Below are positions 43,655-63,780 of a stretch of DNA of 64,000 nucleotides, one piece after another. The position numbers were made by a program, and so were the translations under genes. How positions within the stretch are numbered: position 1 is the stretch's first letter; the number at the start of each line of letters is the position of its first letter. The DNA is from Mycobacterium sp. 852014-50255_SCH5639931. Lineage in GTDB: Bacteria > Actinomycetota > Actinomycetes > Mycobacteriales > Mycobacteriaceae. Location: contig NZ_LZSV01000002.1 of NCBI RefSeq assembly GCF_001665605.1, positions 372,001 to 436,000 of the forward strand. The letters are read 5' to 3'. Under the pieces are notes generated by a model that saw nothing but the letters and a program-made list of their open reading frames with translations, was not told the DNA's origin and did no database searches.

Positions 43655-45319
43655 GTGAAGACGAGGAAGAGCGCGCTGGCCGCTGTCGTGTGCACGGCGA
43701 TGGTGCTGAGCGGATGCGGTGGCAAAAGCGATCCCGGCCCACTGTCCGCGATGGTCAGTCCGGCCATTCCGCCCACCGCTCAGGAAATCCCAAACCCGCT
43801 GCGCGGCCAGTACGAAGAAGGCTTGAATCCGCTTTTCCCGCAAGGCAATTCCGCGCAGCAGCGGTACGCTGCCTGGCCCGCTTCGGATGACGCCAGCTTG
43901 CGGGTTTCGTGGCGGCAGTTGCAGCCGGTCGACCCGCGCACGCTGCCCGCCGACGCTCCCGACGACCGCAAGTTCGACTTCAGCGTGATCGACGACACGC
44001 TGGCGAAACTCGGCAGCCGAAACATGAGGCTGACCCTTGGCGTGTACGCCTACAAATCCTGTTGCGAAGATTCCTATCCGGACAACACCAACATCGCGAT
44101 TCCGGACTGGATCCGCCCCGCGGCCACCAGCTATCCCGCAACGCCGAACGGTTCCGGACCCCGTGTGGCACAGGTGGTCCCGAATTGGAACGACGCCGGC
44201 TACCTGAACGGTTTCGGGCAGTTGCTCGCCGCGCTCGGGCGGCGCTACGACGGCGATGAGCGCCTCAGCGTGTTCGAGTTCTCCGGATACGGTGATTTCG
44301 GCAAGACCAGCCTCGCGTACGTGCGTGACGCGCTCGGTGCCCCCGGGCCGGCGCCGGACGAGAGCATGCCGAAGTTGGGCTATTACAGCCAGTTCCGTGA
44401 TCAGAGCATCACCAAAGCGTCCATCGGGCAACTGGTCGCGGCGAACGTCGGCGCGTTCCCCCACACCCAACTGGTGGTCACCGCCGAGAATCCGGAGATC
44501 GTCCGCGAGTTGTTCGCCGACGACGTGACCAAAAAACTGTCCGCACCGGTCGGCGTCCGCGCGGATTGTCTTGGGGTGCAGTCCCCCCTGCCGGAATGGG
44601 CCGAGTCCAGCGACTCGCACTACGTGCGGTTCAATGACGCCGCCGTCAACACGATCAAGCAGCGGCTCACCTCGGCGCTGGTGATCAGCCAGTGGTGCCG
44701 GTTGCCGAACGGGACCGACCCGCGGTCGTACTACGAGAAGGCCCTGCACGACGTCGTCAGGTATCACGTCTCGATGACGGCGAGCGCCGACTTCCCCGAC
44801 CGGGATGCGACGTCGGCGATGGACCCCAAGCTCTATCTCCTCTGGGCCAAGGCGAACACCTCCGCCGGTTACCGGTATTCGGTGGAGGCCAAGCCGGGAT
44901 CGCAGTCCATCCGGGACAAGGTGGCTTCCATCTCGGTCGTCTGGACCAACTACGGCTCGGCGGCGGCCACCGAGCAATGGGCGCCCGGTTACAAGCTGGT
45001 CGATTTCTCGGGAGCGGTGGTCCGCTCCATTCCGGCGACGGTCAATCTCAAGACGCTGTCGCACGACGACTCCAGCCAGTCACGCGAGGAGGCGGTTCCC
45101 GAGTCGTCGACCGAGTCGGTGCGCGTCGACGTGACGGGCCTGGCGCCCGGGCACTACACGCTGCGCGCGTCCGTGGAATGGCAGCAGCACAAGCCGGGCG
45201 CCTCGCACGTGGTGAACTACGCGCCGATGGCGCTGGCCCGCGACGGCCGCGACGGTTCCGGCCTGTATCCGATCGCCACGCTCGACATCGCGAGCGACGC
45301 CTCCACCGCCGGTCAATGA
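43655..45319 (+). CDS. Putative glycosidase-like lipoprotein, copy 1 (DUF4832-like, Rv1006-type)
   Basis: 554 residues from GTG 43655. The signal ends in lipobox LSGC (C21). After a short linker, NPLRGQY and WRQLQPVDPRTLP...FDFSVIDDTLAKLGSRNMRLTLGV recall the TIM-barrel start of DUF4874/DUF4832 and GH42-like proteins; FEFSGYGDFGK may carry the general acid. At residue 346 the second presumed acidic position is Gln (VISQWCR), where copy 2 has Glu. A beta-sandwich tail (VWTNYGSAAATEQW...YTLRASVEWQQHKPGASHVV) follows. Probably at the outer membrane surface, acting on or binding the polysaccharide made by the neighbouring locus; that is inference. Confidence 0.78.
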   Translation: MKTRKSALAAVVCTAMVLSGCGGKSDPGPLSAMVSPAIPPTAQEIPNPLRGQYEEGLNPLFPQGNSAQQRYAAWPASDDASLRVSWRQLQPVDPRTLPADAPDDRKFDFSVIDDTLAKLGSRNMRLTLGVYAYKSCCEDSYPDNTNIAIPDWIRPAATSYPATPNGSGPRVAQVVPNWNDAGYLNGFGQLLAALGRRYDGDERLSVFEFSGYGDFGKTSLAYVRDALGAPGPAPDESMPKLGYYSQFRDQSITKASIGQLVAANVGAFPHTQLVVTAENPEIVRELFADDVTKKLSAPVGVRADCLGVQSPLPEWAESSDSHYVRFNDAAVNTIKQRLTSALVISQWCRLPNGTDPRSYYEKALHDVVRYHVSMTASADFPDRDATSAMDPKLYLLWAKANTSAGYRYSVEAKPGSQSIRDKVASISVVWTNYGSAAATEQWAPGYKLVDFSGAVVRSIPATVNLKTLSHDDSSQSREEAVPESSTESVRVDVTGLAPGHYTLRASVEWQQHKPGASHVVNYAPMALARDGRDGSGLYPIATLDIASDASTAGQ

Positions 45320-45502
45320 CGCGCAGCGGCCCGCAAGGAGCGCCTTTGTCACCGTCTACCAGCGCCGCACAAGTTGCTCGTTAGCCCGGATGAAGCGGGT
45401 ATTGCGTGATACGTTTTTGCTGACTGAAACCGATCGTGACCTGCCCGGGTCCGCGTAAACACGGGATACGCATCGAGACCGTCCCCCGCCCGGCTGGGAT
45501 GC

Positions 45503-47386
45503 ATGCCCGTATCGGAGGAGACCGTGCCGCGCAGCCTGGACCTGGTCGTCACCTCCGTCGCCACGCAGCTGATGGAAGCCACCGCAGCCACGGCCACCCT
45601 GGTGAGCCAAAAGGTGCTCGCGCAACTCGTCGAGCAGTTCGACGTGGACGCCAGCTTCTTGCGACACCTCGACCCGCAGACCCGGGCCTCGGCGCTGGTC
45701 GCCGAGTGGCCACCCCGGCCGGACGCCGCGGATCCGGATCCGACGGCCTTCGCCCAGTTGGACATCGCGGAGTCGGTCCTCGCACAGTGCGGGCACGGCC
45801 GCAAACCGGTGGTGATCCGGCCGGCGCAGTCGAAACGCTATGTTCGGCGCCGGCTGGGCGGCGCCAAAGTGGCCGCCTCGCCCTCGGTGGCGGCCGCACC
45901 GCTGGTCTCGGGTGAGACCACCACCGGCTTGCTCGGCTTCGTCAAGTTCGGCGCCCGCAAGTGGGAGCAAGACGAGATCAACACGCTCGAGGCCGTCGCC
46001 GCGCTGTTCGCGCAGGTGCAAGCGCGCATCGCGGCCGAAGAAAAGCTCCGCTATCTCGCCGAGCACGACGATCTGACCGGCCTGTACAACCGCCGTGCCC
46101 TGGTCGCGCACCTGACCGAACGGCTGTTGGCGGGACGCCCCGGGCCCATCGCGGTGCTGTACCTCGACCTCGACCGGCTCAAGCCGATCAACGACTACCT
46201 CGGCCACACCGCCGGTGACTGGTTCATCCGGGTCTTCGCGCAACGCATCCGGATCTGCGCTCCCAACAGCACGATCGCCCGGCTGGGCGGGGACGAGTTC
46301 GTCGTCGTGCCCGACCAGCCGATGGCGCCGGAAGCCGCCGAGTCGTTCGCCCGTCGCCTCTCGGCGATGCTGTGCGAGCGCCTGGCCATCGGCGGCCACG
46401 TGATCAGCCGGACGGTCAGCATCGGGCTCGCGGTGGGTGTTCCGGGGCTGGACAACTGCACCGACCTGCTCCGCCGGGCCGACGAGGCCGTGCTGACGGC
46501 GAAACGCGGTGGCGGTAACCAGATTGCGGTGTCCACCGATGACATGTCCCTCAAACGCGCGTTCCGCAACGACATCGAGCTGCATCTGCAGGGCGACATC
46601 GGCAGCGAGGCGTTGCTGCTGCACTACCTGCCGGAGGTCGACCTGTCGACGGGCGCCATCGTGGGCGCGGAGGCGCTGGTGCGGTGGCGGCACCCGATTT
46701 GGGGGCTGCTGCTGCCGGATTCGTTCATCGGGATCGCCGAATCGACCAACCTGGCGATGGAGTTGGGCCGCTGGGTGCTGCGCAACGCATGCGCCGAGTT
46801 CAGTCGCTGGCAGGCCAACGGTGTCGGCCGGGAGGCCGTCATGCGGGTCAACGTGTCGCCCATCCAGCTCATCAGCCGCGGCTTCGTGCGCGGCGTCGCC
46901 GACACCATAGACGAGTTCGGCATCGGAGCCGGCTCGGTGTGCCTGGAAATCACCGAACGCGCCGTGGTCCACGACATCGATACCACTCGAAAAACCCTGG
47001 CGGAGCTCAAGGAAGTCGGGGTCCAGCTGGCCATCGACGACTTCGGCACCGGTTATGCGGTGTTGTCGCATCTGAAATCCCTGCCGGTCGACATGCTCAA
47101 GATCGACACCGGATTCGTGCGGGATCTGGGCAACAACGCCGGTGATCTGGCGATCGTTCGCGCGATCATCGGGCTGGCCGAGGCGTTCGGCCTGGAAGTG
47201 GTGGCCGAGGGAGTTGAAACACCGGACGCGGCAATGATTTTGATGCAGCACGGGTGTCGCCGGGCGCAGGGTTTTTTGCTGTCGCGCCCCGTCCCCGGCG
47301 ACGAGATGGAAGCGCTGCTGGCCGCGCGGTGGCTGCCGATGCCGTTTTTGGCCGACCTCAAGGCGTTGCCGACGAGCGCCATCTAG
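45503..47386 (+). CDS. GAF-GGDEF-EAL cyclic-di-GMP synthase/phosphodiesterase (Rv1354c-like)
   Basis: 627 residues. An N-terminal GAF domain (about 20-175) is followed by GGDEF (active-site GGDEF at 262-266, LYLDLDRLKPIND) and EAL (EALVRWRHP at 390-398, NVSP, EITE, DDFGTGY, EGVET). Both catalytic sets look intact and no RxxD inhibitory site precedes GGDEF. It resembles M. tuberculosis Rv1354c throughout. It can make and degrade c-di-GMP in the cytosol, probably tuned by a GAF ligand. Lying between two surface lipoproteins and before a Wzz/Wzy cluster, it likely controls polysaccharide output. Confidence 0.95.
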   Translation: MPVSEETVPRSLDLVVTSVATQLMEATAATATLVSQKVLAQLVEQFDVDASFLRHLDPQTRASALVAEWPPRPDAADPDPTAFAQLDIAESVLAQCGHGRKPVVIRPAQSKRYVRRRLGGAKVAASPSVAAAPLVSGETTTGLLGFVKFGARKWEQDEINTLEAVAALFAQVQARIAAEEKLRYLAEHDDLTGLYNRRALVAHLTERLLAGRPGPIAVLYLDLDRLKPINDYLGHTAGDWFIRVFAQRIRICAPNSTIARLGGDEFVVVPDQPMAPEAAESFARRLSAMLCERLAIGGHVISRTVSIGLAVGVPGLDNCTDLLRRADEAVLTAKRGGGNQIAVSTDDMSLKRAFRNDIELHLQGDIGSEALLLHYLPEVDLSTGAIVGAEALVRWRHPIWGLLLPDSFIGIAESTNLAMELGRWVLRNACAEFSRWQANGVGREAVMRVNVSPIQLISRGFVRGVADTIDEFGIGAGSVCLEITERAVVHDIDTTRKTLAELKEVGVQLAIDDFGTGYAVLSHLKSLPVDMLKIDTGFVRDLGNNAGDLAIVRAIIGLAEAFGLEVVAEGVETPDAAMILMQHGCRRAQGFLLSRPVPGDEMEALLAARWLPMPFLADLKALPTSAI

Positions 47387-47396
47387 CATCGCACCG

Positions 47397-49073
47397 ATGG
47401 TCCGAAAACTGAGGAAGTGGACGGCGGTGATCGTCGCGTGCTCGGCGCTCGTGCTGAGCGGATGCGGTGGCCACAGCGCCCCCGATCCGCTGTCCGCCGT
47501 GATCAGTCCCGCCATCCCGCTCAGCGTGCAGGAGGTAGCGAATCCGCTGCGCGGGCAGTACGAAGACCTGATGATGCCGCTTTTCCCGCAAGGCAATTCC
47601 GCGCAGCAGCGGTATCCGGCGTGGCCGGCCTCGTACGACGGCAGCTTGCGCGTTTCGTGGCGGCAGCTGCAGCCCACCGACCCGAACACGCTGCCCGCCG
47701 ACGCGCCCGACGATCGCAAGTTCGACTTCAGCGTGATCGACGACGCGCTGGCGAAGCTCGCGAGCAGGAACATGCGGCTCACGCTTCGCGTGTTCGCCTA
47801 CAACTCCTGTTGCGACGCCACCTATGCGAACAACACGAACATCGCCATCCCGGACTGGATGCGCTCCGCGTCCACCAGCTACACGGGGCCGCAACGATAC
47901 TGGTGGACACCCGGGGTGGCGCACGTGGTGCCGAACTGGAATGACCCCGCGTACCTGAACGCCTTCGGGCAGCTGCTCGCCGCGCTCGGTCGCCGCTATG
48001 ACGGCGACGAGCGGCTCAGCGTTTTCGAGTTCTCCGGCTACGGGGACTTCAGCGAGAATCACATCGCCTATCTGCGCGACACGCTGGGGGCACCGGGTCC
48101 CTCTCCGGAAGAGAGCATCGCAAAGCTCGGTTACTACAGCCAGTTTCGTGATCAGAGCATCACCAAAGCGGCCATCGGACAGCTCGTCGCTGCGAACGTG
48201 AACGCGTTCCCCCATACGCGATTAGTGACCACCGCCCTGAATCCCGAGATCGTTCGCGAGCTGCTCGCCGACGATGTCACCAAGAAGGTGTCCGCGCCGG
48301 TGGGCATCCGCTCGGATTGCCTCGGCGTGTACGCGCCGTTGCCCGTGTGGGCGGAGTCGGATGGCTCGTACTACGTGCACACGAAAGATCCGGTCGTCGG
48401 CCAGCTGAAAGACCGGTTGGCCTCGGCATTGGTGATCACCGAATGGTGCCAGCTGCCCGACGGGACGACTGCGCGGTCGTACTACGAGAAGGGCCTGCGC
48501 GACGTCGTGAAGTACCACGTGTCGATGACGTCGAGTTTCAACTTCCCGGCCGTGGATTCGAACACCCCGATGGACCCGGCGTTGTACCTGCTGTGGGCAC
48601 AAGCCAACGTGTCGGCCGGCTATCGCTACTCCGTGGAAGCGCGGCCGGGATCGGAATCGTTTCGCGATCGCGTGGCGACCATATCGGTGGTTTGGACCAA
48701 CTACGGCAGCGCCGGGGCGGTGGAGAAATGGGTGCCCAGCTACCGGCTGGTGGATTTCTCCGGCGCGGTGGTCCGCACGCTGCCGACAGCCGTGGCCCTG
48801 CACAAACTGGTCCCCTCAGGGGAGAACTCGGGTAATCAACCTGTCCCGGCGTCGTTCACCGAATCGGTGACCGTCGACCTGGCGGGGTTGGCGCCTGGGC
48901 ACTACACGCTGCGCGCATCCGTGGATTGGCAACAGCACAAGCCGGACGCGTCGCATGTGGTGAACTATCCACCCATGCGGCTGGCCCGCTCCGGACGCGA
49001 TGAATCCGGGGGGTATCCGCTCGCGACCCTCGACATCCCGCGCGAGGCGCTGACTTCCGCCCCGCGCCAATGA
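47397..49073 (+). CDS. Putative glycosidase-like lipoprotein, copy 2 (DUF4832-like)
   Basis: 558 residues from ATG 47397, only 10 bases after the c-di-GMP gene, so co-transcribed with it. Lipobox LSGC (C23). Domain order equals copy 1 and the DNA shares an identical 38-base stretch with it (47577-47614 and 43829-43866). Both presumed acidic positions are kept: FEFSGYGDF and E349 in VITEWCQ. It may therefore be the active hydrolase of the pair, trimming or releasing the polymer as PslG or BcsZ-type enzymes do in other EPS systems (analogy only). Confidence 0.78.
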   Translation: MVRKLRKWTAVIVACSALVLSGCGGHSAPDPLSAVISPAIPLSVQEVANPLRGQYEDLMMPLFPQGNSAQQRYPAWPASYDGSLRVSWRQLQPTDPNTLPADAPDDRKFDFSVIDDALAKLASRNMRLTLRVFAYNSCCDATYANNTNIAIPDWMRSASTSYTGPQRYWWTPGVAHVVPNWNDPAYLNAFGQLLAALGRRYDGDERLSVFEFSGYGDFSENHIAYLRDTLGAPGPSPEESIAKLGYYSQFRDQSITKAAIGQLVAANVNAFPHTRLVTTALNPEIVRELLADDVTKKVSAPVGIRSDCLGVYAPLPVWAESDGSYYVHTKDPVVGQLKDRLASALVITEWCQLPDGTTARSYYEKGLRDVVKYHVSMTSSFNFPAVDSNTPMDPALYLLWAQANVSAGYRYSVEARPGSESFRDRVATISVVWTNYGSAGAVEKWVPSYRLVDFSGAVVRTLPTAVALHKLVPSGENSGNQPVPASFTESVTVDLAGLAPGHYTLRASVDWQQHKPDASHVVNYPPMRLARSGRDESGGYPLATLDIPREALTSAPRQ

Positions 49074-49151
49074 TCGTGGGCGCCAGCAAATGCTTCCAAG
49101 CGGGGGGCGAGAACGGGTTGCGATTAGGACGATGCTGCGTGGCGAGTGCTG

Positions 49152-49157
49152 CATAAT
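49152..49157 (+). promoter_or_regulatory. Weak -10 candidate before the polysaccharide genes
   Basis: CATAAT preceded by TGCTG lies 82 bases before the Wzz-like start, in the 165-base gap 49074-49238. No good -35 is seen at 16-18 bases. The gap shows no other feature, apart from an AGAGAGG ribosome-binding site before 49239. Confidence 0.3.
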
Positions 49158-49238
49158 GTGCACTGGGCTTTGCGCGGCGGGTGTAAGGCAAATCAATTCG
49201 ACGCTATTGGCGTGGCGTCGCCCCAGAGAGGTTAGTGG

Positions 49239-50696
49239 ATGGATTTCCGCACCTTTGTCCGGACCCTCCTCACGCATTGGAAACTCGCCTTGGGGGCATT
49301 GCTGGCGTGCACAATCGGCGCTGCGGCGGTCACGGCATTGCAGACGAAGCACTACCAGTCGACGGCCACCATCCTCATTTCCTTTCCCGGTGCCACCGAC
49401 CTCACCGAGTTGTACAACGGCACGCTGACCGCGCAGGAACGGTTGTCGTCCTACGCGCAGATCGCGGGCGGCCGGACGGTGGCGGAGCGCGCGGTCAACC
49501 AGCTGCAAGCCCCGATCAGTGCGGACGCCCTGGTGACCCAAACTCAGGTGAAATACACCGCCAAGTCCCAGCTTTTCACGATCACCGTCAAGGACACCGA
49601 CCCGAACCGCGCCGCGGCCCTGGCGGGAGCGATGGCCGATCAGTTCGCCGCGCTGGTGCCGACGCTCGGCGCGACCACGGGTCCGAACGGCCGGCCCGTG
49701 CCGGTGACGCCCGGTTCGCGGCCCGACGTCGGCGAGCCGAATCCACCCGCGGCCCCACCGTCGGAAACGCCCGGCCAACCGGCGGCCAAGCCCATGCCGG
49801 TGGCGAGGGCGCGGGTGGTGGAAGCGCCGCGCGTGCCCGATCACCCCGTGACGCCGGTGCCGGTGCGCAACATGGCGATGGGATTTGTCGCCGGAATCCT
49901 GCTGGCCATCGCGGTGGCGGTGGCCCGCGAGGCCAGCGATCGCACTGTGCGATCCCGGGAGAAGCTGGAACAGCTTTCGGGCCTGCCGACTTTGGCCGAG
50001 CTGCCCGGCAGGCGCGGGAACACCCCGCGGTTCGGCGTCGACTCCGCCCTCGACGACGCCGTGCGGGGCTTGCGCGCCCGGCTGCTCAGGGCGATCGGCC
50101 CCGACGCCCGCCGAGTGCTGGTGGCGGCGCCGTTCGGTGGGGAGGGGACCACGACCACGGCACTGAACCTGTCGCTGGCCCTCGCCGAGGTCGGCGAGGA
50201 CGTCCTGCTCGTCGAGGGCGATACTCGCCGGCACGTGATCGCCGGTCTGCTGCGGGTCGAGTCGGGGGAGGGGCTGGCCAACGCGCTGGCCAGCCCCGAG
50301 ATCGCCGCGGAAGCCGTGAAGCCGACGCCGATCGCCAAGCTGTTCATCCTCGCGTCCCGGTCCGCCCGCCGCGAGACCCCGCCCTGCAGCGCGTTTCTGC
50401 CGGAGGTGATCGACAGGGTGATGCTGGACTTGTCGTCAAGCTTCGACCGGATCGTGGTCGACGGGCCGCCGGTGCTGGCGACGCCGGACAGCGGCCTGCT
50501 GGCGGGCGCCGTGTCGGCCACGGTCCTCGTGGTGCGGGCGCGCCGGACCACCGTGGACGAGCTCAACGACGCGCTGACCGCCTTGCGCTCGGCCGGTGCA
50601 CAGGTGGTCGGCACCGTGCTGACCGACGCCCGGCCGTCCCTGCACATCAGGGCCGCGGCCAAGACCTATCGGGCGAAGGTCGGCGGGCCGGCGTGA
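49239..50696 (+). CDS. Wzz/BY-kinase-like chain-length protein with altered Walker A
   Basis: 485 residues. A Wzz domain has TM1 (LALGALLACTIGAAAVTAL) and TM2 (NMAMGFVAGILLAIAVAVAREASD) around an extracytoplasmic part with a Pro-rich stretch (residues about 160-200). The cytoplasmic part resembles bacterial tyrosine kinases: Walker A' LLVEGDTRR, Walker B IVVDGPPV. The P-loop reads GGEGTTTT, with T304 where the invariant lysine should be, and no C-terminal tyrosine cluster exists. It probably sets polymer length with the Wzy-like partner; kinase activity is doubtful. Overlaps the next gene (GTGA). Confidence 0.88.
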   Translation: MDFRTFVRTLLTHWKLALGALLACTIGAAAVTALQTKHYQSTATILISFPGATDLTELYNGTLTAQERLSSYAQIAGGRTVAERAVNQLQAPISADALVTQTQVKYTAKSQLFTITVKDTDPNRAAALAGAMADQFAALVPTLGATTGPNGRPVPVTPGSRPDVGEPNPPAAPPSETPGQPAAKPMPVARARVVEAPRVPDHPVTPVPVRNMAMGFVAGILLAIAVAVAREASDRTVRSREKLEQLSGLPTLAELPGRRGNTPRFGVDSALDDAVRGLRARLLRAIGPDARRVLVAAPFGGEGTTTTALNLSLALAEVGEDVLLVEGDTRRHVIAGLLRVESGEGLANALASPEIAAEAVKPTPIAKLFILASRSARRETPPCSAFLPEVIDRVMLDLSSSFDRIVVDGPPVLATPDSGLLAGAVSATVLVVRARRTTVDELNDALTALRSAGAQVVGTVLTDARPSLHIRAAAKTYRAKVGGPA

Positions 50697-52171: not shown

Positions 52172-53181
52172 TTGCGGTCACTCACGTCGGGCCCGACATG
52201 TACAGCTTCGGCGGCACGCAGTCCGTGATACGAGTCATCCGCGACAACAGGATCGGTGCCGACGAAATTCGCGTCCTGTCGACGTGGAACGGGCGCCACC
52301 ACGCCAAGAATCTGTGGCTCACCGCGCGCGCGGGGGCCGCGCTGGCCCGGGCGCCGCGCGGGGGCGTCGTGCACTTCCATATGTCGAACGGCGGCGCCTG
52401 GCTGCGCGAAGGGCCGCTGATCCGCCTCGCGCGGGCGCGTGGCTTCCGGGTCGTCGTGACCATCCACGGCTCCGACTTTCCGCAATTCTCCCGGTCGCAC
52501 CCCCATTTCGTGGGCTCGACGCTGAGGAAGGCGGACCATCTCATCGTCTTGTCGGAGGAAGCGCGTGCCGCCGCGAGATGGGTTGCGCCCGCGGTGCCGG
52601 TGTCGATCGTGGCCAACCCGGTCGTCATCGATCGAGACGCGCCCGGGGCCGGCTCGACACCGCCCGTCGTGCTTTTCGCCGGCACCATTGGTCGCCGCAA
52701 GGGCGTCGACACGCTGGTCTCGGCCTGGCGGCTGCTGCTGGCCGAGGGCATCGAAGGGCGTTGCCGCATAGTCGGTGTCGTCGACGACTACACGCCGCCG
52801 CCAACCGAGCGTCTCAGCGTCGAGCCCCCGGTACATCCGGACCGGGTCCGCGAGCTACTCCGGTCGGTCCGCGTGGTGACGCTGCCGTCGTTCTCCGAGG
52901 CAATGCCGATGATCCTGACCGAGGCCCTCGCCGGCGGGCGGCCGTTCGTGGCGACTCCGGTCGGTGGCACGCCGGAGATCGCCTCGGACGCGGGCATGCT
53001 CGTCCCCGCCGGTGACGCGTCCGCGTTGGCGGCGGCGATCGGCCGGTACCTGCGTGACCCGGAGCTGGCCGAGCGTGACGGGCGTCGCGGTCAGGAACAC
53101 ATCGCGGCGACACGGAGCCCGCGGATCATCGACGCGGAGCTGCGCCGGATTTACGAGGGCTGCGGTGTTAGAGCAAGTTGA
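52168..53181 (+). CDS. GT4-family glycosyltransferase
   Basis: 337 residues from ATG 52168 (ATGA overlap with the polymerase). GT-B fold: N-terminal MIAVTHVGPDMYSFGGTQSVIR, then VTIHGSDF, LFAGTIGRRKGVDTLVSAWR, and C-terminal LPSFSEAMPMILTEALAGGRPFVATPVGGTPEI with the retaining ExxxxxxxE pattern. It transfers one sugar of the repeat unit from a nucleotide sugar; donor unknown. Overlaps the next gene by 17 bases. Confidence 0.9.
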   Translation: MIAVTHVGPDMYSFGGTQSVIRVIRDNRIGADEIRVLSTWNGRHHAKNLWLTARAGAALARAPRGGVVHFHMSNGGAWLREGPLIRLARARGFRVVVTIHGSDFPQFSRSHPHFVGSTLRKADHLIVLSEEARAAARWVAPAVPVSIVANPVVIDRDAPGAGSTPPVVLFAGTIGRRKGVDTLVSAWRLLLAEGIEGRCRIVGVVDDYTPPPTERLSVEPPVHPDRVRELLRSVRVVTLPSFSEAMPMILTEALAGGRPFVATPVGGTPEIASDAGMLVPAGDASALAAAIGRYLRDPELAERDGRRGQEHIAATRSPRIIDAELRRIYEGCGVRAS

Positions 53182-54124
53182 GCTCGAGGGGTCGCAGCTG
53201 AGAGTGAGCGCTGTGGGCTTCGGATGCGGCGGTCTGATGCAGTCGCCGTCCCGCCGGGAACGGATGGCCGTGCTGGGCGCCGCGGTGCACAGCGGCATCA
53301 CGCACTTCGACACCGCACGGATGTATGGCCTGGGCAGGGCGGAGGCGGAACTGGGGGCGTTCCTGCGGACGGTCCCGCGCGACACCGTCACCGTCGCAAC
53401 CAAATTCGGCATCGACGTCGGGGGGATGGCGAGGCGCCTCGGCCGGTTTCAGGCTCCGGCGCGGGCACTGCTGCGCAAGGCGCCGGCGCTGCGGCGCGCC
53501 GTCAAGCGGCAGCAGGCGACACCCGAAACCGCCCGCGTGTACGACGCGGTCACCGCGGCCCGCAGCCTCGACGAGAGTCTCGTGGCGCTGGGCATCGATT
53601 ACGTGGACATCCTGTTCGTTCACGGCCCACGGCCGGGGGACACCGTGGCCCGCGGTGAACTTCGCGAATTCTTTGAACGTGCCCGCCAGCAGGGCAAGAT
53701 ACGCGCCTGGGGTGTCTCACAGGACGAGGGGCTCGACACGGACTTCGCCGCGTCCTTCGCGCCGGAAGGGGTGAGCCAGGTGCGCGCCGACCTGTTCCAT
53801 CCGCCGCCGCGCCCAGCGGATCTCGCATTCGGCGTGTTGCAACGTTCGTACGCGGCACTCTCGAACGCGTTGCGGGCCGACGCGGAGTTGGCGCGACGCT
53901 GGCGCCAGACCCTCCAGCTCGATCCGCTCGCTCCCGGGGCGCTGTCCAAGCTGATCCTCGGCTCCTCGGCCGTCGCAACGGGTTGCCGCGCAATCCTTTA
54001 CAGCACCACCGACCCCCTCCGGGTCGCCGAAGCGGCCGGTGCGGTCTCGGCGCCGCCGGAACCGGAGACCCTGGAGCGGTTCCTCGCTCTGGTGGCGGAG
54101 GTGCGTGGGGGTGCTGCCGCGTGA
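53165..54124 (+). CDS. Aldo/keto reductase
   Basis: 319 residues from GTG 53165. AKR features: VSAVGFGCGGLM, GITHFDTARMYGLGRAE (catalytic D and Y), ATKFGID (catalytic K), and IDYVDILFVHGPRPGD; an IRAWGVSQ strand follows. The NADPH-binding part is shorter than usual. In this cluster it may reduce a sugar or polyol keto group, together with the coupled GMC oxidoreductase; that is inference. Both its ends overlap neighbours. Confidence 0.87.
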   Translation: MLEQVELEGSQLRVSAVGFGCGGLMQSPSRRERMAVLGAAVHSGITHFDTARMYGLGRAEAELGAFLRTVPRDTVTVATKFGIDVGGMARRLGRFQAPARALLRKAPALRRAVKRQQATPETARVYDAVTAARSLDESLVALGIDYVDILFVHGPRPGDTVARGELREFFERARQQGKIRAWGVSQDEGLDTDFAASFAPEGVSQVRADLFHPPPRPADLAFGVLQRSYAALSNALRADAELARRWRQTLQLDPLAPGALSKLILGSSAVATGCRAILYSTTDPLRVAEAAGAVSAPPEPETLERFLALVAEVRGGAAA

Positions 54125-55824: not shown

Positions 55825-55829
55825 GCAGG

Positions 55830-56888
55830 TCAGCGCCGACTGGCCAGCACCCGGGCGATGACATCCAAAAAGCGCTCCGCGACGATGTCGACGTCGCAAT
55901 GCTGCGCGTAGTAGCGCGCCGCCTCGGCGCCGCGCTGCGCCGCGACCGACGGGTCGGCCAGCAGGTCGAAGGCGGCGGCGAGCCCGGCGACATCGTCGAC
56001 ACCGATCGGGGGACAGCCGGGAGGCTGGTACTCGGGCAGACCACCGGACGTTGACACGATCGGCATCACACCCAGCTGCATGGAGAGCACCTGCACGCCG
56101 CTTTGCGACGCGCGCCGATAATGCGAGACCGAACCTTTCGCGGCGGCCAGGATCGGAATGACGTCGGCGTAGCGGTAGCTGCCGTTGCGCCAGCGCGTGT
56201 GTTTGGGCAGGGCGGCGGGGTCCAGGGGCCCGTCGCCGATGAGCACCAGGTTGTCACCGCGCCAGCCGCCGCCGACGATATGGCGCTGCCACGCCTCGAG
56301 CACGACGTCGACGTTCTTGTACGGGTTGAGCCGGCCGAACATGACGAAATCCCGGCGTCCCTCGGGGCCCACGAATGGTGGAACGCGTTGCGGGTCAATA
56401 TCACTGGCGAGCGGCACGACATACACGGGGGTGCCCGCGACGTCGCGGCGCGCCGCGACGGCTGCCGCGACGTACTGGCTGTAGGTGATGGTGGCCGCCG
56501 AGCGGGCGCCCCACCGGTCGAACACCGCGCGTTCGTAGGACGGGACCCGTTCGTCGGGGTCGTGCGGCCGGTCGTCGTGCACCACCTGGATGCGGGGAAC
56601 CTGCCCGGCCAACGCGATCCAGCGGGGATCGCGGACGATCTCGGCGATCACGACGTCGGGTCGAAACTCACGGATCCGGCGCCACGCCTTGAAGGTCGGG
56701 ACCCAAGTCGCGGCGCTTTTGAACCGCGGATCGAGCACCAGCTCGTACTCACGGGCGGCGTCCGACTCGGGGTGCCGGTCGGAGGTCACCAGCAACACGT
56801 CGGCTCCGCGCCGCAGCAGCCCCTCGGCCTGCACCCGCACCGCCGGCCGTGTCCAGGGCGAAAGCCAAAGCACCCGGGGCGATTTCAT
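55830..56888 (-). CDS. GT4-family glycosyltransferase
   Basis: 352 residues from ATG 56888 (MKSPRVLWLSPWTRPAVRVQ). The C-terminal GT1-type domain has FVMFGRLNPYKNVDVVLEAW, NLVLIGDGPLDPAAL and SVSHYRRASQSGVQVLSMQLGVMPIVSTSGGLPEY. In the usual ExxxxxxxE position it reads Q-S-G-V-Q-V-L, so the acidic pattern is altered. It overlaps the methyltransferase upstream (ATGA), and the two are co-transcribed. Confidence 0.87.
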   Translation of the reverse strand: MKSPRVLWLSPWTRPAVRVQAEGLLRRGADVLLVTSDRHPESDAAREYELVLDPRFKSAATWVPTFKAWRRIREFRPDVVIAEIVRDPRWIALAGQVPRIQVVHDDRPHDPDERVPSYERAVFDRWGARSAATITYSQYVAAAVAARRDVAGTPVYVVPLASDIDPQRVPPFVGPEGRRDFVMFGRLNPYKNVDVVLEAWQRHIVGGGWRGDNLVLIGDGPLDPAALPKHTRWRNGSYRYADVIPILAAAKGSVSHYRRASQSGVQVLSMQLGVMPIVSTSGGLPEYQPPGCPPIGVDDVAGLAAAFDLLADPSVAAQRGAEAARYYAQHCDVDIVAERFLDVIARVLASRR

Positions 56889-57706
56889 TGCTCGTTGTCG
56901 GCCTTCAGGAAGACGTCGGCGTCGGTCCACATCCGGGTCTGAAGTGCGCGTCGCGGCAGGCCCTCGAGGAGGCCGGTGATGCGGGGCGAGGCCAGCAGCC
57001 GCCAGGCCAGCGGATTGATTTCCGCCCGGGTCCAAATGTGCAGCCCCATGCCCCCGAGCTGCCACCACCGCGTTTTGGAGGTGTGGAACTGCATGCCTAA
57101 TTGCTTTCCGATGAACGCCAACGTCGATCTCTGATAGAAGGTGATGTGCTGGCCGGTGGCAAAGGCGTAGTACATCCATTCCTCCGGCGGCGGGGGCCGG
57201 CCGTCGAAGAGTTCGGTCGTAAACACGATGGAGTCGGTGCCCGTGGTCTCCAGCAATTCGGCAACGAATCCGACCGGGTCGGCGAGATGCTCCATCACCT
57301 CGAAGGCGGTGACCACCGTGTACGGCGGGCCCGGACCCGCGTCCGCCTCGAAGCCTTGCGCGGTCAGGTTGGGGGAGTGCTTGTCGGTCCAGTAATAGTC
57401 GAAGCCGATGTCCCGCATCAGGCGGGTGAAAACACCGTAGCCCCCGGCCGCGTCGAGAAACCGGCCGCGGCGATCGAAGAAGAAGTACAGCAGCACCGAC
57501 ATCGCCCGTGCAAGATACTGATTGCGCCACAGCATGGTGGTGTCCGCCGCCGCGATGGGGCTGGCATAGGCCTCGTCCAGCCAATGCGGCTCTTCGGTCT
57601 GCAGACCGCCGCAGTTGTCGCAGAGGTAGTACTTGCAGTCGTATTTGGCGAGGATCTGGTGAGTGAACGCCAGACTGGTGCTCGAATTGCAGATGCGGCA
57701 GAACAT
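56885..57706 (-). CDS. SAM methyltransferase with zinc-ribbon N-terminus
   Basis: 273 residues from ATG 57706 (MFCRICNSSTSLAF). CRIC and CDNC form a four-cysteine zinc site, as in sugar C-methyltransferases of the TylC3/NovU type. A Methyltransf_23 core follows (GRFLDAAGGYGVFTRLM, then TAFEVMEHLADPVGFV). It could make a branched or methylated sugar of the repeat unit. The frame extends to 57751, but MFCRIC is the family start. Confidence 0.85.
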   Translation of the reverse strand: MFCRICNSSTSLAFTHQILAKYDCKYYLCDNCGGLQTEEPHWLDEAYASPIAAADTTMLWRNQYLARAMSVLLYFFFDRRGRFLDAAGGYGVFTRLMRDIGFDYYWTDKHSPNLTAQGFEADAGPGPPYTVVTAFEVMEHLADPVGFVAELLETTGTDSIVFTTELFDGRPPPPEEWMYYAFATGQHITFYQRSTLAFIGKQLGMQFHTSKTRWWQLGGMGLHIWTRAEINPLAWRLLASPRITGLLEGLPRRALQTRMWTDADVFLKADNEQ

Positions 57707-57803
57707 GCCTATCAAACCCTCCCGAGCATGACCCGCGCCTTGAGCAAACACCGGGACAATGGAGAACCTACGGCACCTTCGACGCTATCGGCAAGCAAAT
57801 CAC

Positions 57804-57818
57804 CGCCGAATTTCGGCG
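57804..57818. promoter_or_regulatory. Perfect palindrome in divergent gap
   Basis: CGCCGAA-T-TTCGGCG sits in the 190-base gap between the minus-strand methyltransferase and the plus-strand FkbM-like gene. It could be an operator for either or both. Nothing else is recognised in this gap. Confidence 0.4.
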
Positions 57819-57896
57819 CGGACGGGCGTTGTGCAGCACCGCTATTCACCGAATGCCGGGAATAGTCGCCCGGGGCCGTGATAGCTTTGGTCTCCG

Positions 57897-58763
57897 ATGG
57901 CCAGAAGCGCTACACCGCCGCCGAAAGAGACGCTCCGGCAGAAGGTCCGGCGCATTCTCGGCAGTGAAACGCGGGACCAGCTCAAGGATCTGATCCTTTT
58001 CGATCATTCCCAGTCGCTGAAGGCGAACCATCCCAACCCGCTCAACCGCGCGGGCAAGAAGTGTTTTTCGGCGACCGATGAGGACGGAATAACGCTGGAG
58101 ATCCTGCGCCGTATCGGCCGGCTCGACGGCGGTGTCTTCGCGGAGTTCGGTGTGGGCGACGGGACGGAGAACAACACCCTGATCCTTGCGGCCCTGGGCT
58201 GGAAGGGCTTCTGGATCGGGGGACAGGACCTGGCCGTGGCCGTCGAGAACCACCCGCGGTTCGCCTACGAGAAGGCGTGGATAACCGCGGACAATATCGT
58301 TGCGCTGGGCCGGTCCTGCCTGCAGAGGATCGACGCCGCGGGGGTCGACGTGGTTTCCCTCGACCTGGACGGCAACGACATCTACCTGGTCGAGAAACTC
58401 CTGGCCGATGGCATCCGTCCCAAACTCTTCATCGTCGAATACAACGGGAAGTTCCCCCCGCCGGTGAAGTTTCAGATCGCCTACGATCCCGAGCACGTGT
58501 GGCAGTCCGACGACTATTTCGGGGCGTCACTGAGCAGTTATGCCGAGCTGTTCGCCCGCTTCGACTACCGCCTGGTCTGCTGCAACTCCCACTCCGGTTC
58601 CGACGCGTTCTTCATCGACACCGCCCTGTCCGAGTACTTCGCCGATGTGCCGACGGACATCGAACAGCTTTACGTGGAGCCCAGGTATTTCCTGTACAGC
58701 GGGTTCGGACAGCACAAGACGTCGCCCCGCACCGTGGCCAAGATCCTCCGATACGAGCGGTAG
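57897..58763 (+). CDS. FkbM-like methyltransferase-fold protein
   Basis: 288 residues. GGVFAEFGVGDGTENNTLILAALGWKGFWI resembles SAM motif I and the acidic strand is degenerate (WIGGQ); VDVVSLDLDGNDIYLVEKL and IRPKLFIVEYNGKFPP are the later conserved blocks of FkbM/Methyltransf_21-related proteins. No signal or membrane helix. Likely an O-methyltransferase modifying the polysaccharide or a lipid carrier; not proven. It is a single plus-strand gene between two minus-strand blocks. Confidence 0.72.
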   Translation: MARSATPPPKETLRQKVRRILGSETRDQLKDLILFDHSQSLKANHPNPLNRAGKKCFSATDEDGITLEILRRIGRLDGGVFAEFGVGDGTENNTLILAALGWKGFWIGGQDLAVAVENHPRFAYEKAWITADNIVALGRSCLQRIDAAGVDVVSLDLDGNDIYLVEKLLADGIRPKLFIVEYNGKFPPPVKFQIAYDPEHVWQSDDYFGASLSSYAELFARFDYRLVCCNSHSGSDAFFIDTALSEYFADVPTDIEQLYVEPRYFLYSGFGQHKTSPRTVAKILRYER

Positions 58764-58798
58764 GGCGTTGCGCGAGAGTAATTTTCTCCGGCGCGCAT

Positions 58799-60727
58799 TC
58801 ACAGCACCGCGTTGATCGCGTCGAGGTAGGCGTCGGCCATCGCCTCCACGGTGTAGTGCTTGCGCATCCGCTCGAAGCCTCGTCGCCCGACCGACGGCAA
58901 TGCGTCCGGGTCCGCCAGGATTCGGGTCAGGCTCTCCCGCCATCCCGCCACCGACACGGGCTCGACCAGAAATCCCGCCCTGCCGAAATCGAGCATCTCC
59001 GGCACGGCGCAAATCGCCGACGCCGCAACGGGAACCGCCCGGGCCATCGCCTCGAGAATCACCAACGGAAATGCCTCGGACCGGCTCGGGACGCACAGCA
59101 GGTCCGCGTCGGCCAGCGCGGGCCCGGGTCCGGCCGACCATCCCCGCCACTGCACCCGATCGCACAACCCGGCCGGGGTAAGCGCCTGCAACCTCTCGCG
59201 ATCCGGGCCGTCACCGAAAATCGAAAGCCGCCAAGGCATATCGGGCAGGTCGCCGAGCGCCTCGATCAGCAGGTGCGGGTTTTTGTGCTCGACGATGCGC
59301 GAGAGCATGACCAAGTGCAGCGGCTCACCGGCGGTGCGGACCCGGGGCGCCGGGTCACCGGCGAGGGCGACGCCGTTGGGCGCAACGAAGTGCCGTCCCG
59401 ATAGCCGGTGCTGGGCCACCAGCATGTCCCAATGCCGTTGGGCCAGCACGATGAAGCCGTCGGCGCGGCGCATGGCGGCGGTCAGCGGCCGCGAGTAGAT
59501 GGGCCGGTCCTCCTCGGGCGGGACATGCGGGGCCACCAACCAGCGTCGGCCGGCCGCGCCCGCACGCCACAGTGTGGCGAATCCCGCCTCCGTGTTGGTG
59601 TCGGCGGTGACGAGCACCGCCGGGCCTTCGGGGATATCGACGACGGGCGCCCACCAGGGCTGGCGTACCACGCGCACGGTGTCCGGAATCTCGGAGACCA
59701 TTGGGCCGAACCGTTGCACGCAGACGATGGTGACCGAGTAACCCCGGCGATCCAACTCCGTTGCCAGCAACGCCTTTTGCCTTTCGGCACCGCCGTAGAC
59801 CAGGCGGTTTGTGGTGATCACGATCGCGGGCAGGTCCTTGCGGCGGCCGGCGTGAGCGGTCCGCCGTGACCGCCGCAGCACGGTGGTACCGGCCAGATAC
59901 GCGTCCGCGTGGTGCACGCTGTGCTGATGCTCGAGCAGCAGCGCGGTATCGGCTCGCGCCAGATCCCGCTCGCGGCGGCGCTCGGCGGCGGTGCCCTCGT
60001 CGTCGCCGAGACCGGAGCGGTCGACGCCGATCTCATCGGCCAGGTGCATCCGCCAGCCCGCCGCGCGGGCCCGCGCCTGCCAGTCCGCCGCCGCTTCGAA
60101 GCCGAGAAACTCTTCGTCGAAGCCGCCGACGGTGTTCCAGGCCGCGCGGCTGATCGCCAGACAGGTGGCATCCAATTCGCCGTCCACACCTCGTGATTCG
60201 GCCGGTTGGCGGGCATAACGGCGTGAAATCGGTGAGCCGCGCCGCTTGCCCGCGGCCAGCTCGCGAACCAGGGTTCGGCGGCGCGTTGCGATGTCCCACG
60301 GCCTCCAGCCGGGTGCAGTGTCGTCGCGCGCCATCGGCGAAACCGCGGCCACCCGCGGCTGGCGCAGCAACTCGCGGGTGCGGGTCAACGCCCCCAGCAG
60401 GCGGCCTCTGGCGTCGAGCAGCAGCAGATCCGCGTCGCTCGGCGCACGCTCCACCAGGGCGTTGAAGGCCTCGGCGAAGCTGATTTTCGCCGTGCCCGAC
60501 ACCCAGTGGACGCGCGGGTGTCGGGCGGCCAGTTCCGTACGGTCGCCGGGTTCGTAGACATAGACGTGCAGCCCGGGCAGCTGCTCGGCGACGGCGGCGA
60601 GGCACCTCTCGAGTGTGTCGTGGCCGCAACCGGCCACGATCAGCACGGCGATCGACCGGATGGGCGGCAGCGCGGCCGCGCCGCCGACCGGGCTCTTCAG
60701 ATATTGCCGGTCCAATTCACCCTTCAT
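58799..60727 (-). CDS. Bifunctional GT2-GT4 fusion glycosyltransferase
   Basis: 642 residues from ATG 60727. The N-terminal half (about 25-270) resembles GT2 enzymes (AVLIVAGCGHDTLERCLAAVAEQ, LLLLDARGRLL in the DxD place, CLAISRAAWNTVGGFDEEFLGFEAAADW). The C-terminal half (about 310-640) is GT4 (TNRLVYGGAERQKALLATEL, LVMLSRIVEHKNPHLLIEALG, PSRSEAFPLVILEAMARAVPVAAS). The DxD of the GT2 half reads D-A-R, so that half may be weakened. A fusion can add two sugars in turn. It overlaps the flippase gene (ATGA). Confidence 0.85.
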   Translation of the reverse strand: MKGELDRQYLKSPVGGAAALPPIRSIAVLIVAGCGHDTLERCLAAVAEQLPGLHVYVYEPGDRTELAARHPRVHWVSGTAKISFAEAFNALVERAPSDADLLLLDARGRLLGALTRTRELLRQPRVAAVSPMARDDTAPGWRPWDIATRRRTLVRELAAGKRRGSPISRRYARQPAESRGVDGELDATCLAISRAAWNTVGGFDEEFLGFEAAADWQARARAAGWRMHLADEIGVDRSGLGDDEGTAAERRRERDLARADTALLLEHQHSVHHADAYLAGTTVLRRSRRTAHAGRRKDLPAIVITTNRLVYGGAERQKALLATELDRRGYSVTIVCVQRFGPMVSEIPDTVRVVRQPWWAPVVDIPEGPAVLVTADTNTEAGFATLWRAGAAGRRWLVAPHVPPEEDRPIYSRPLTAAMRRADGFIVLAQRHWDMLVAQHRLSGRHFVAPNGVALAGDPAPRVRTAGEPLHLVMLSRIVEHKNPHLLIEALGDLPDMPWRLSIFGDGPDRERLQALTPAGLCDRVQWRGWSAGPGPALADADLLCVPSRSEAFPLVILEAMARAVPVAASAICAVPEMLDFGRAGFLVEPVSVAGWRESLTRILADPDALPSVGRRGFERMRKHYTVEAMADAYLDAINAVL

Positions 60728-62187: not shown

Positions 62188-62193
62188 GACTCC

Positions 62194-63780
62194 CTAGTAT
62201 GCGCCGTGACTGGTGAGAACGGCCTTAATCGTCTTGGCGATGATCATGAGATCACCCGACATCGACCAGTTGTCGACATAGGACAGGTCCAACCGCACCG
62301 ACTCTTCCCAGGACAGGTCGGATCGGCCGCTCACTTGCCACAATCCGCTGACGCCCGGCCTCACCAGCAGCCGCCGCTTGACGTCACCGTCGTAGTTCTC
62401 GACTTCGCGCCGCAACGGTGGGCGTGGCCCGACGACGCTCATCTCGCCTTTGAGCACGTTGATGAACTGCGGCAGCTCGTCGATGCTGAACCTGCGCAGA
62501 ATCCTGCCGACGGGAGTGACGCGCGGGTCCTGGCGCATCTTGAACAGCATGCCGCCGGCGCCTTCGTTCAGCGCCAATAGGTGCTCGACCTGTGTGTCAG
62601 CACCGTCGATCATGGTCCGGAACTTGAGCATTCTGAAGGGCTTACCGTCGATGCCGATCCGTTCGGATTGGTAGAACACCGGACCCTTGCTGGTGAGCTT
62701 GACGGCGATAGCCGCTGCGATGAGAATGGGCGCTGTCCCGATGAGGGCCGCCAGCGAGAAGAGGAAATCGAAGACCTGCTTCTGAAAGCGTTGCGTCCCT
62801 TCGTATTGCGGCTTCTCGACATGCAGCAACGGCATGCCGGCGGTGGGCCGAAGGGTCAACCGCGTCTCCGCCACGTCCATCACCCCGGGCGACACCACGA
62901 CGTCGACGTCCATCGTCTCCAACTGCCACATCAGCTCTCGGATGCCGTGCATCCCAAAGTGATCCGTCTGGGTGACCGCCACGGTGTCCGCGCCGCAGCG
63001 CTGAATCGCGGCCACCGCGTCGGTGACGTCACCGAGAATCGGCACCGCGCGGCCACTGAGGGTGAGGGTATTGCCCCGCGGTCTCCCGTAGCCGGGAATG
63101 CAGACACCGACCACGACGTAACCGTCGAGCGGGTTGCGCGCCAGTTCGTGGGCAAGGTGGGAAACCGCCTGGCGGTCCCCGATCGCCAGGACCGTCGTCT
63201 GGCATTGGCCGTTCGCGCGCATCTGGCGGATGTGCTTGCGCCACAGGCTGCGACTCCCCAGCAAGCCCATGGTACCGACGGGAAGCGCGATGGCGAGATA
63301 ACCGCGGGCCAGGTCGACCTTTGCGAGCAAAGTCACCATCGCGATGATTCCGAACGTCCAGAATGACGCGCTGCCGATGCGCCGGTACTCGTCGATGCCG
63401 GCACCGATGACTCGCGGTGAGCGCGTTTGGAATACCGCCAGCGATGACAGCCACAGCGCCGCGAACAGGAATGACAACATCGTCATCACGACGTCCGAGT
63501 AACCCGAGGTGTTGGCGATTTCGCCGAATCGGACGTACTGCGCGAGCAACACCGACGCGCACACGATCACGGTGTCGCTGATGCGCAGGTGCTGCGAATA
63601 CTGGTGCTGCCAGCGCCGGACGGCATTCCCCGCGGGGGAGGGCGCCGGAGCGGCGGTGATGGGTAAAGCGCTGGTTTGGTGGCGAGCCGACGGCATCATG
63701 CCGGCAGGCCCCCGCTTGTGCGGCCCCGGTTCGGCGTGCACGACATCCACCAATTCCCGGGTCATCAACGGCTTAGACAT
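62194..63780 (-). CDS. Initiating sugar-phosphate transferase (WbaP/CpsE-like, PHPT)
   Basis: 528 residues from ATG 63780. The N-terminal region has four or five membrane helices, a central CoA-binding-like domain (TVLAIGDRQAVSHLAHEL), and the C-terminal Bac_transf core with KGPVFYQSERIGIDGKPFRMLKFRTM, RRFSIDELPQFINVLKGEMSVVGPRPPL and RPGVSGLWQVSGRSDLSW. It transfers hexose-1-phosphate to decaprenyl phosphate and starts the repeat unit. The ATG lies 16 bases inside the upstream epimerase gene. Confidence 0.93.
   Translation of the reverse strand: MSKPLMTRELVDVVHAEPGPHKRGPAGMMPSARHQTSALPITAAPAPSPAGNAVRRWQHQYSQHLRISDTVIVCASVLLAQYVRFGEIANTSGYSDVVMTMLSFLFAALWLSSLAVFQTRSPRVIGAGIDEYRRIGSASFWTFGIIAMVTLLAKVDLARGYLAIALPVGTMGLLGSRSLWRKHIRQMRANGQCQTTVLAIGDRQAVSHLAHELARNPLDGYVVVGVCIPGYGRPRGNTLTLSGRAVPILGDVTDAVAAIQRCGADTVAVTQTDHFGMHGIRELMWQLETMDVDVVVSPGVMDVAETRLTLRPTAGMPLLHVEKPQYEGTQRFQKQVFDFLFSLAALIGTAPILIAAAIAVKLTSKGPVFYQSERIGIDGKPFRMLKFRTMIDGADTQVEHLLALNEGAGGMLFKMRQDPRVTPVGRILRRFSIDELPQFINVLKGEMSVVGPRPPLRREVENYDGDVKRRLLVRPGVSGLWQVSGRSDLSWEESVRLDLSYVDNWSMSGDLMIIAKTIKAVLTSHGAY

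What the first reader, a model, noticed from the sequence alone, without database searches (positions are those of the whole stretch)
43655..63780. Exopolysaccharide locus with a built-in cyclic-di-GMP enzyme and a pair of glycosidase-like lipoproteins
A GAF-GGDEF-EAL protein with both sites intact lies between two paralogous surface lipoproteins and directly before Wzz, Wzy, glycosyltransferase, Wzx, initiating transferase and RmlC-like genes. In Gram-negative EPS systems c-di-GMP control and a periplasmic or surface hydrolase often go with the synthesis genes. A complete Wzx/Wzy-type locus of this sort is not among the well-known mycobacterial polysaccharide pathways (glucan, arabinomannan, LAM). 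M. tuberculosis keeps only an Rv1006-like lipoprotein at this place.
Basis: partly seen in the sequence, partly recalled or inferred. Interest (0 to 1): 0.85.

Follow-up and report, generated by a model that had tools for sequence, protein, structure and literature searches.

The report
Mycobacterial polysaccharide locus with decoy glycosidase
A gene cluster found in many mycobacteria carries the parts predicted to build, flip and polymerise a surface polysaccharide, beside a predicted cyclic-di-GMP enzyme and two related predicted lipoproteins, of which one keeps both acid residues of a likely polymer-cutting active site and the other has lost one of them, which points to a likely regulated matrix pathway that I did not find described in the papers I could search.

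Summary
Window 43538-64000 has lipoprotein A, GAF-GGDEF-EAL, lipoprotein B, Wzz, Wzy_C, glycosyltransferases, Wzx, an initiating sugar transferase and the edge of an RmlC gene. Among 148 genomes of the genus the parts travel together: 43 of 47 with the Wzx have the lipoprotein, and 34 of 37 with the locus-type GGDEF-EAL have the Wzx. Lipoprotein B is predicted (pLDDT 91) to be a TIM-barrel glycosidase with acids E211 and E349 ending strands 4 and 7. Lipoprotein A has Q for E349. In 33 two-copy loci the first copy has lost a site acid in 31, the second in none, yet A is as constrained as B (dN/dS 0.153 and 0.158). The Wzz P-loop domain lacks the Walker A lysine in 60 of 60 relatives. Best reading: a Wzx/Wzy polysaccharide locus with a likely active glycosidase, a pseudo-glycosidase, a chain-length protein without kinase residues, and a c-di-GMP enzyme that likely tunes output. 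That last link rests on co-inheritance only; the genome has no PilZ match. No polymer or activity is shown. New variant of a known kind.

The parts
43538..45319 (+). Lipoprotein A: TIM-barrel glycosidase paralogue whose second predicted catalytic acid is Q (predicted pseudo-glycosidase)
   Evidence: ORF; DUF4832 19.4 bits, below its cut-off 29.2; Q at E349, K at E220, S at H222
45503..47386 (+). GAF-GGDEF-EAL protein of the locus-type clade, motifs intact
47397..49073 (+). Lipoprotein B: predicted active TIM-barrel glycosidase, E211 and E349
49239..50696 (+). Wzz chain-length protein fused to a P-loop domain without Walker A lysine and without a tyrosine cluster; the only PF02706 match found in the genome
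50693..52171 (+). Wzy_C membrane protein, likely polymerase
   Evidence: PF04932 36.4 bits
52168..53181 (+). GT4 glycosyltransferase
53168..54124 (+). aldo/keto reductase
   Evidence: PF00248 81.4 bits
54154..55824 (+). GMC-type oxidoreductase
   Evidence: PF05199 85.4 bits
55830..56927 (-). GT4 glycosyltransferase
56885..57751 (-). methyltransferase (Methyltransf_23)
   Evidence: PF13489 60.1 bits
57897..58763 (+). 288-aa protein without a family match; present at the same place in those close relatives whose fetched flank reaches it
58799..60727 (-). two-part glycosyltransferase, GT4 at the C-terminus
   Evidence: PF00534 94.4 bits
60724..62187 (-). Wzx flippase
   Evidence: PF01943 63.9 bits; genus survey
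62194..63780 (-). initiating polyprenyl-phosphate sugar-1-phosphate transferase (start codon by my choice; the ORF runs to 63870)
   Evidence: PF02397 224.6 bits; TIGR03025 428 bits
63819..64000 (-). RmlC-like dTDP-sugar epimerase, cut by the window end (match runs on to window-equivalent 64322)
   Evidence: PF00908 183.8 bits at G000:C2:435819-436322

Best explanation
This is a gene cluster predicted to make a polymerised surface polysaccharide by the Wzx/Wzy route, in which lipoprotein B is a likely polymer-cutting glycosidase, lipoprotein A is its paralogue that has lost one of the two predicted catalytic acids and likely only binds the polymer, and a GGDEF-EAL protein, whose close relatives in the genus survey lie beside the lipoprotein gene, likely tunes output through c-di-GMP. 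Shown here: gene content, intact GGDEF and EAL motifs, co-inheritance, Q at E349 in A, equal constraint on A and B, no Walker A lysine in Wzz. Predicted: the TIM-barrel fold, with E211 ending strand 4 and E349 ending strand 7 as the catalytic pair. Inferred: the initiating transferase loads the first sugar on polyprenyl phosphate, the glycosyltransferases extend it, Wzx flips the unit, Wzy polymerises under Wzz; at the outer face B cuts or releases chains, as PslG does for Psl, while A holds them; the GAF domain senses a signal and shifts the enzyme between making and breaking c-di-GMP. The receptor is unknown.
Against: No sugar, polymer or activity has been measured. Wzy_C is also the family of ligases. 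13 of 47 Wzx genomes lack the locus-type GGDEF-EAL and 15 of 58 lipoprotein genomes lack the Wzx, so neither is strictly needed. The GGDEF-EAL set is partly my choice: two copies at 69% in G147, a genome without the lipoprotein, are more alike than the three that I counted for adjacency. The named copies in the tree come from a search with the lipoprotein, so their place beside it is by construction. No PilZ match, so how c-di-GMP would act is open. TIM-barrel matches are common; TM-scores (by query length) of the Foldseek rows are 0.27-0.36 with rmsd 12-16. Degeneration of A is clustered: the tree needs at least 6 changes, of which strongly supported branches force only 2. 8 of 39 one-copy loci are degenerate too. 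4 of 12 other Wzz-like proteins also lack the lysine. Whether PslG is needed for Psl synthesis is disputed (PMC6813494, passage).
Confidence: 0.6

Rival explanations
1. The sugar genes make a known short glycolipid (glycopeptidolipid, lipooligosaccharide or phenolic glycolipid) and Wzx/Wzy only move or ligate it.
For: Methyltransferase, RmlC and GT4 genes occur in such loci (recalled). PF04932 is described as O-Antigen ligase.
Against: Initiating transferase, Wzx, Wzy_C and the only Wzz found in the genome occur together; of the 14 window genes given to Pfam, none matched a lipid-synthesis family.
Confidence: 0.15
2. The GGDEF-EAL is a passenger: it sits beside the lipoprotein by linkage and serves general c-di-GMP balance, like the bifunctional MtbDGC of M. 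tuberculosis.
For: GGDEF-EAL and lipoprotein stand without sugar genes beside them in L098, L100, L102, L109, L127, L130 and others; MtbDGC has both activities in vitro (PMC2994820, passages).
Against: 34 of 37 genomes with it have the Wzx somewhere; in M. ostraviense (L098, the same coordinates as G074) the Wzx and Wzz lie about 24 and 40 kb away. Locus copies branch apart from the 18 non-locus relatives sampled.
Confidence: 0.25
3. Lipoprotein A is simply decaying rather than a kept binding protein.
For: Repeated loss of site residues and a loop deletion in one group.
Against: dN/dS 0.153 against 0.158 for B; 0.135 in four lone copies with Q or R; the reading frames used there are open.
Confidence: 0.15

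Closest known systems
Psl locus with PslG of Pseudomonas aeruginosa
   Same: Polysaccharide gene cluster that includes a retaining endoglycosidase (PMC11912335, abstract) with two catalytic glutamates, E165 and E276; a strain with both changed to Q makes little Psl (PMC6813494, passages). Lipoprotein A has the same kind of E-to-Q change by nature.
   Different: PslG is a single enzyme of another family (GH39, recalled; no such Pfam match here); here there are two lipoproteins, one degenerate. The role of PslG in synthesis is disputed in the same paper.
MtbDGC (Rv1354c) / MSDGC-1
   Same: GAF-GGDEF-EAL layout, 623 residues, bifunctional in vitro (PMC2994820, passages).
   Different: 64 locus copies form their own clade and lie beside the lipoprotein.
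Wzc / CpsCD bacterial tyrosine kinase co-polymerases
   Same: Wzz domain joined to a P-loop domain; best NCBIfam rows are such autokinases, below cut-off.
   Different: No Walker A lysine in 60 of 60 and only 1-2 tyrosines in the last 60 residues.
Rv1717 beta-galactosidase of M. tuberculosis
   Same: Cell-wall glycosidase linked to biofilm dispersion (PMC7873859, title and start of abstract in a search listing).
   Different: Cupin superfamily by that abstract, not a TIM barrel.

Membership tests
Wzx/Wzy-dependent polysaccharide pathway | initiating polyprenyl-phosphate sugar-1-P transferase | tested here: met
   PF02397 224.6 bits; TIGR03025 428 over cut-off 295.55
Wzx/Wzy-dependent polysaccharide pathway | Wzx flippase | tested here: met
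   PF01943 63.9 over 28.2
Wzx/Wzy-dependent polysaccharide pathway | Wzy polymerase | tested here: inconclusive
   PF04932 36.4 over 31.7, but the family also holds ligases
Wzx/Wzy-dependent polysaccharide pathway | Wzz co-polymerase | tested here: met
   PF02706 33.7 over 25.5; one match in the genome
Wzx/Wzy-dependent polysaccharide pathway | Wza-type outer-membrane exporter (Gram-negative form only) | tested here: not met
   no PF02563 match in the genome at E 0.001
Bacterial tyrosine kinase (Wzc/CpsD) | Walker A lysine and C-terminal tyrosine cluster | tested here: not met
   lysine in 0 of 60; 1-2 tyrosines in last 60 residues; 8 of 12 other Wzz-like proteins of the genus have the lysine, 4 have R
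Clan GH-A type glycosidase (lipoprotein B) | TIM barrel with acids at the ends of strands 4 and 7 | tested here: met
   on a predicted model only: E211 in strand 207-212, E349 in strand 346-350; PDB matches; the clan pattern is recalled
Clan GH-A type glycosidase (lipoprotein A) | both predicted catalytic acids | tested here: not met
   Q at E349
Clan GH-A type glycosidase | hydrolysis with retention | not testable with these tools
   needs an enzyme assay
GH39 (PslG) | sequence family match | tested here: not met
   no GH39 row for A or B in Pfam at E 0.001
DUF4832 (PF16116) | match over the gathering score | tested here: inconclusive
   A 19.4 bits, B no row, cut-off 29.2; three far relatives 43.5, 30.8 and 27.9
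Bifunctional diguanylate cyclase / phosphodiesterase | GGDEF and EAL catalytic motifs | tested here: met
   GGDEF 68 of 69 (one GGDGF, L126), EAL 69 of 69, DDFG[TS]GY 69 of 69
MtbDGC (Rv1354c) orthologues | same clade as the non-locus relatives | tested here: inconclusive
   64 locus copies form a separate clade, support 100, on a fast tree; no named Rv1354c was in it

The most novel reading that the evidence does not exclude
Mycobacteria have a matrix-polysaccharide machine in which the usual tyrosine-kinase switch on the Wzz protein has been lost and a co-inherited c-di-GMP enzyme has taken over its control, while one of two surface glycosidases has repeatedly been turned into a polymer-holding pseudo-enzyme: one lipoprotein cuts the chain, its twin keeps it on the cell.
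Probability: 0.3. Interest if true: 0.82.

Novelty: new variant of a known kind. Interest (0 to 1): 0.63.

Why it matters
What c-di-GMP controls in mycobacteria and what their biofilm matrix is made of are, to my knowledge, open questions. A GGDEF-EAL gene tied to a polysaccharide locus in species such as M. nebraskense, M. scrofulaceum and M. colombiense gives both a direct test: delete one gene and measure matrix sugar. An intact and a degenerate copy side by side also give a natural pair for studying how a surface glycan is cut and held, and the lone copy kept at the same place in other species may be what remains of the pathway.

Tried and rejected
Rejected: two intact hydrolases (A lacks a predicted catalytic acid). 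Less likely after test: the GGDEF-EAL as just another copy of the general mycobacterial one. Dropped: my own early label BcsB for the secreted protein right of the window (L009 3895-5916): no Pfam match at E 1, no NCBIfam match at E 0.1, no PDB sequence match alone or as a profile; one of five relatives has a chance-level Pfam row. Corrected: I first missed the RmlC gene because it lies across the window end; one search found it. Corrected: a first pattern search found the Walker A lysine in only 4 of 12 control Wzz proteins; aligned, it is 8 of 12, the other 4 having R, so lack of the lysine is not unique to this locus. Corrected: a first count of degenerate first copies (32 of 33) included one, L081, that differs only at H222, which also varies in far relatives; the strict count is 31 of 33, and 8 instead of 10 of 39 one-copy loci. 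The Wzy genus survey was asked for once and not repeated after the machine was busy.

Literature: in the listed titles and abstract starts of nine searches I saw no paper on a Wzx/Wzy locus with a c-di-GMP enzyme in mycobacteria; several of these searches had far more hits than they listed (for example 801). No paper held both DUF4832 and Mycobacterium. The library lacks most subscription journals. Rv1006 appears in 8 papers; one lists it as a horizontally acquired 'Glycosyl transferase' (PMC3087520, one passage).

Choices that affect counts: Wzx at E 1e-60, lipoprotein at E 1e-20; the lipoprotein's 58 genomes include some with fragments only. The Wzz set of 38 is mine: I left out the hits at about 29-39% identity. 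The GGDEF-EAL set of 37 is 34 with at least 77% identity plus 3 at 67-68% taken for being next to the lipoprotein; one search did not list all weak matches. Of 129 lipoprotein ORFs found one fragment (L121 14516) was dropped; the tree has 128. Some unnamed loci repeat species of named ones, so 128, 69 and 60 are sequences, not species. One search kept the best 80 of 137 matches (71 loci).
Full report
Observation. The window is G000:C2:372001-436000 of a 5.38 Mb genome. By lipoprotein B the closest named records are Mycobacterium sp. E3251 and sp. 852014-52450 (97%) and, among named species, M. nebraskense (93%). Genes from 43538 to the right end are as listed under parts. On the + strand Wzz, Wzy, the first GT and the reductase overlap end to start, and lipoprotein B begins 10 bases after the GGDEF-EAL stop. 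The left neighbours are a chorismate-binding enzyme (PF00425), a sigma-factor-like gene and a pyridine nucleotide-disulphide oxidoreductase. The right flank holds a PPE gene and a polysaccharide deacetylase, and genes that I call TetR, metG, tatD, rpfB and ksgA from their translations and from memory. From memory this matches the order Rv1005c, Rv1006, Rv1007c-Rv1010 of M. tuberculosis.

Co-inheritance. In 148 genomes of the genus the lipoprotein is found in 58, the Wzx in 47, and the locus-type GGDEF-EAL in 37 (my cut). Both lipoprotein and Wzx: 43; GGDEF-EAL and Wzx: 34; GGDEF-EAL without lipoprotein: 0. The four Wzx genomes without the lipoprotein hold only far Wzx relatives (45-46% identity). 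Fisher p values are 3e-19 or less but ignore ancestry. Stronger is that in six genomes far relatives of the lipoprotein (43-50%) lie about 4-11 kb from far relatives of the Wzx, in five of them also near two GT relatives, at a place that shows none of the usual flank genes and no locus-type GGDEF-EAL; one of the six (L046) has a weak partial GGDEF match about 9 kb off. So the lipoprotein goes with the sugar genes themselves. Named neighbourhoods (71 loci; 10 kb flanks, which in the window-like loci stop short of Wzx) show lipoA, GGDEF-EAL, lipoB, wzz, wzy and following genes in M. nebraskense, M. europaeum, M. parascrofulaceum, M. scrofulaceum and M. colombiense; GGDEF-EAL, one lipoprotein, wzz and wzy in M. 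gordonae, M. asiaticum and M. kyorinense; and GGDEF-EAL plus lipoprotein followed by TetR-like genes and metG, without local sugar genes, in M. ostraviense, M. innocens, M. attenuatum, M. intermedium, M. szulgai and M. angelicum. In M. ostraviense (L098 has the coordinates of G074) Wzx and Wzz lie about 24 and 40 kb away.

The c-di-GMP enzyme. Motifs are intact. On a fast tree of 89 relatives, 64 locus copies form one clade (support 100) and five M. kyorinense-type copies another; 18 copies from elsewhere in genomes fall outside both, and so do two other proteins near the lipoprotein or wzz (L043, L044). The named copies were fetched through the lipoprotein, so the unbiased evidence is: 34 of 34 copies of at least 77% identity are adjacent to it. 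MtbDGC of this layout makes and breaks c-di-GMP in vitro (PMC2994820, passages). The genome has no PilZ match, so no standard receptor is at hand.

The lipoproteins. The model of B (pLDDT 91.3, pTM 0.88) is a barrel followed by a beta domain; the PDB rows shown are nearly all TIM-barrel glycosidases (a few are enzymes designed on such a barrel). E211 and E349 end strands 4 and 7 by my count of the listed strands, the arrangement of clan GH-A (recalled). Over 87 relatives E211 is invariant and E349 is E in 86; the one exception is the window's A. Of the 315 retrieved proteins 272 have the set E211, E220, H222, E349 intact. In 33 two-copy loci the first copy has lost E220 or E349, or has the loop deletion, in 31 and the second in none; the exceptions are L093 (M. 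helveticum, both intact) and L081 (H222 only). E349 itself is lost in 24 of the 33 first copies. Of 39 one-copy loci, 8 are degenerate. Degenerate copies form six groups on the tree (31, 4, 3, 2, 2 and 1 rows): the fewest changes are 6, of which strongly supported branches force 2. The large group, mostly Q, holds the window's A. Of 35 first copies 34, and of 35 second copies 32, fall in separate lineages. A evolves under the same constraint as B. A P. aeruginosa strain whose PslG has both acids changed to Q makes little Psl, though others found PslG not required (PMC6813494, passages). So A reads as a kept pseudo-glycosidase, best explained as a binder; that is inference.

The Wzz protein. 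It is the only PF02706 match found in the genome. Its P-loop has T, S or A where kinases have lysine in 58 of 60 relatives by pattern, and the strings printed for the other two show T and A. The last 60 residues hold one tyrosine in 53 and two in 7. Of 12 other Wzz-like proteins of the genus, 8 have the lysine with 4-7 tyrosines in the last 80 residues, and 4 have R with 0-3. Loss of the kinase residues next to a c-di-GMP enzyme suggests a change of control, which is inference.

Verdict. A real and co-inherited polysaccharide locus, with a lipoprotein link that reaches far relatives; the arrangement of an intact and a degenerate lipoprotein with a c-di-GMP enzyme is a new variant of a known kind. 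No polymer, activity or receptor is shown.

Noticed in passing
L009 3895-5916 and 5930-6994 (window-equivalent 67895-70994): Protein with a signal-like start, a C-terminal hydrophobic stretch and no family match, next to a polysaccharide deacetylase; relatives (45-58%) lie beside wzz or wzx in L053, L096, L097, L104.
   Followed up: partly
L043 10711-14616: A 1302-residue protein with two GGDEF stretches and an EAL domain starts about 170 bases from the lipoprotein gene, divergently, in a genome that lacks the locus-type enzyme.
   Followed up: partly
L044 196-2052: A GAF-GGDEF-EAL of another clade lies about 4 kb from wzz in a genome whose locus lacks the usual enzyme; possibly a second, independent pairing, or chance.
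   Followed up: partly
L041 2037-4061 and L040 13162-15213: Lipoprotein relatives with an N-terminal CBM60 carbohydrate-binding module.
   Followed up: partly
L068 6000-13900: Mycobacterium sp. 4858 shows lipoA, GGDEF-EAL, lipoB and then directly the initiating transferase; the genes between are missing there.
   Followed up: no
L121 9600-20000: M. lepraemurium shows lipoA (Q form) and GGDEF-EAL, while a second lipoprotein and right-flank genes match only in pieces.
   Followed up: no
G075 and G114: Two genomes of 3.3 Mb hold only lipoprotein remnants with stop codons.
   Followed up: no
window 57897-58763: 288-residue protein with no Pfam or NCBIfam match, present at the same place in close relatives.
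   Followed up: partly
P0231: A 946-member cluster with no name given holds a lipoprotein with the intact site; by its size it may be the tuberculosis-complex protein, which I could not confirm.
   Followed up: partly
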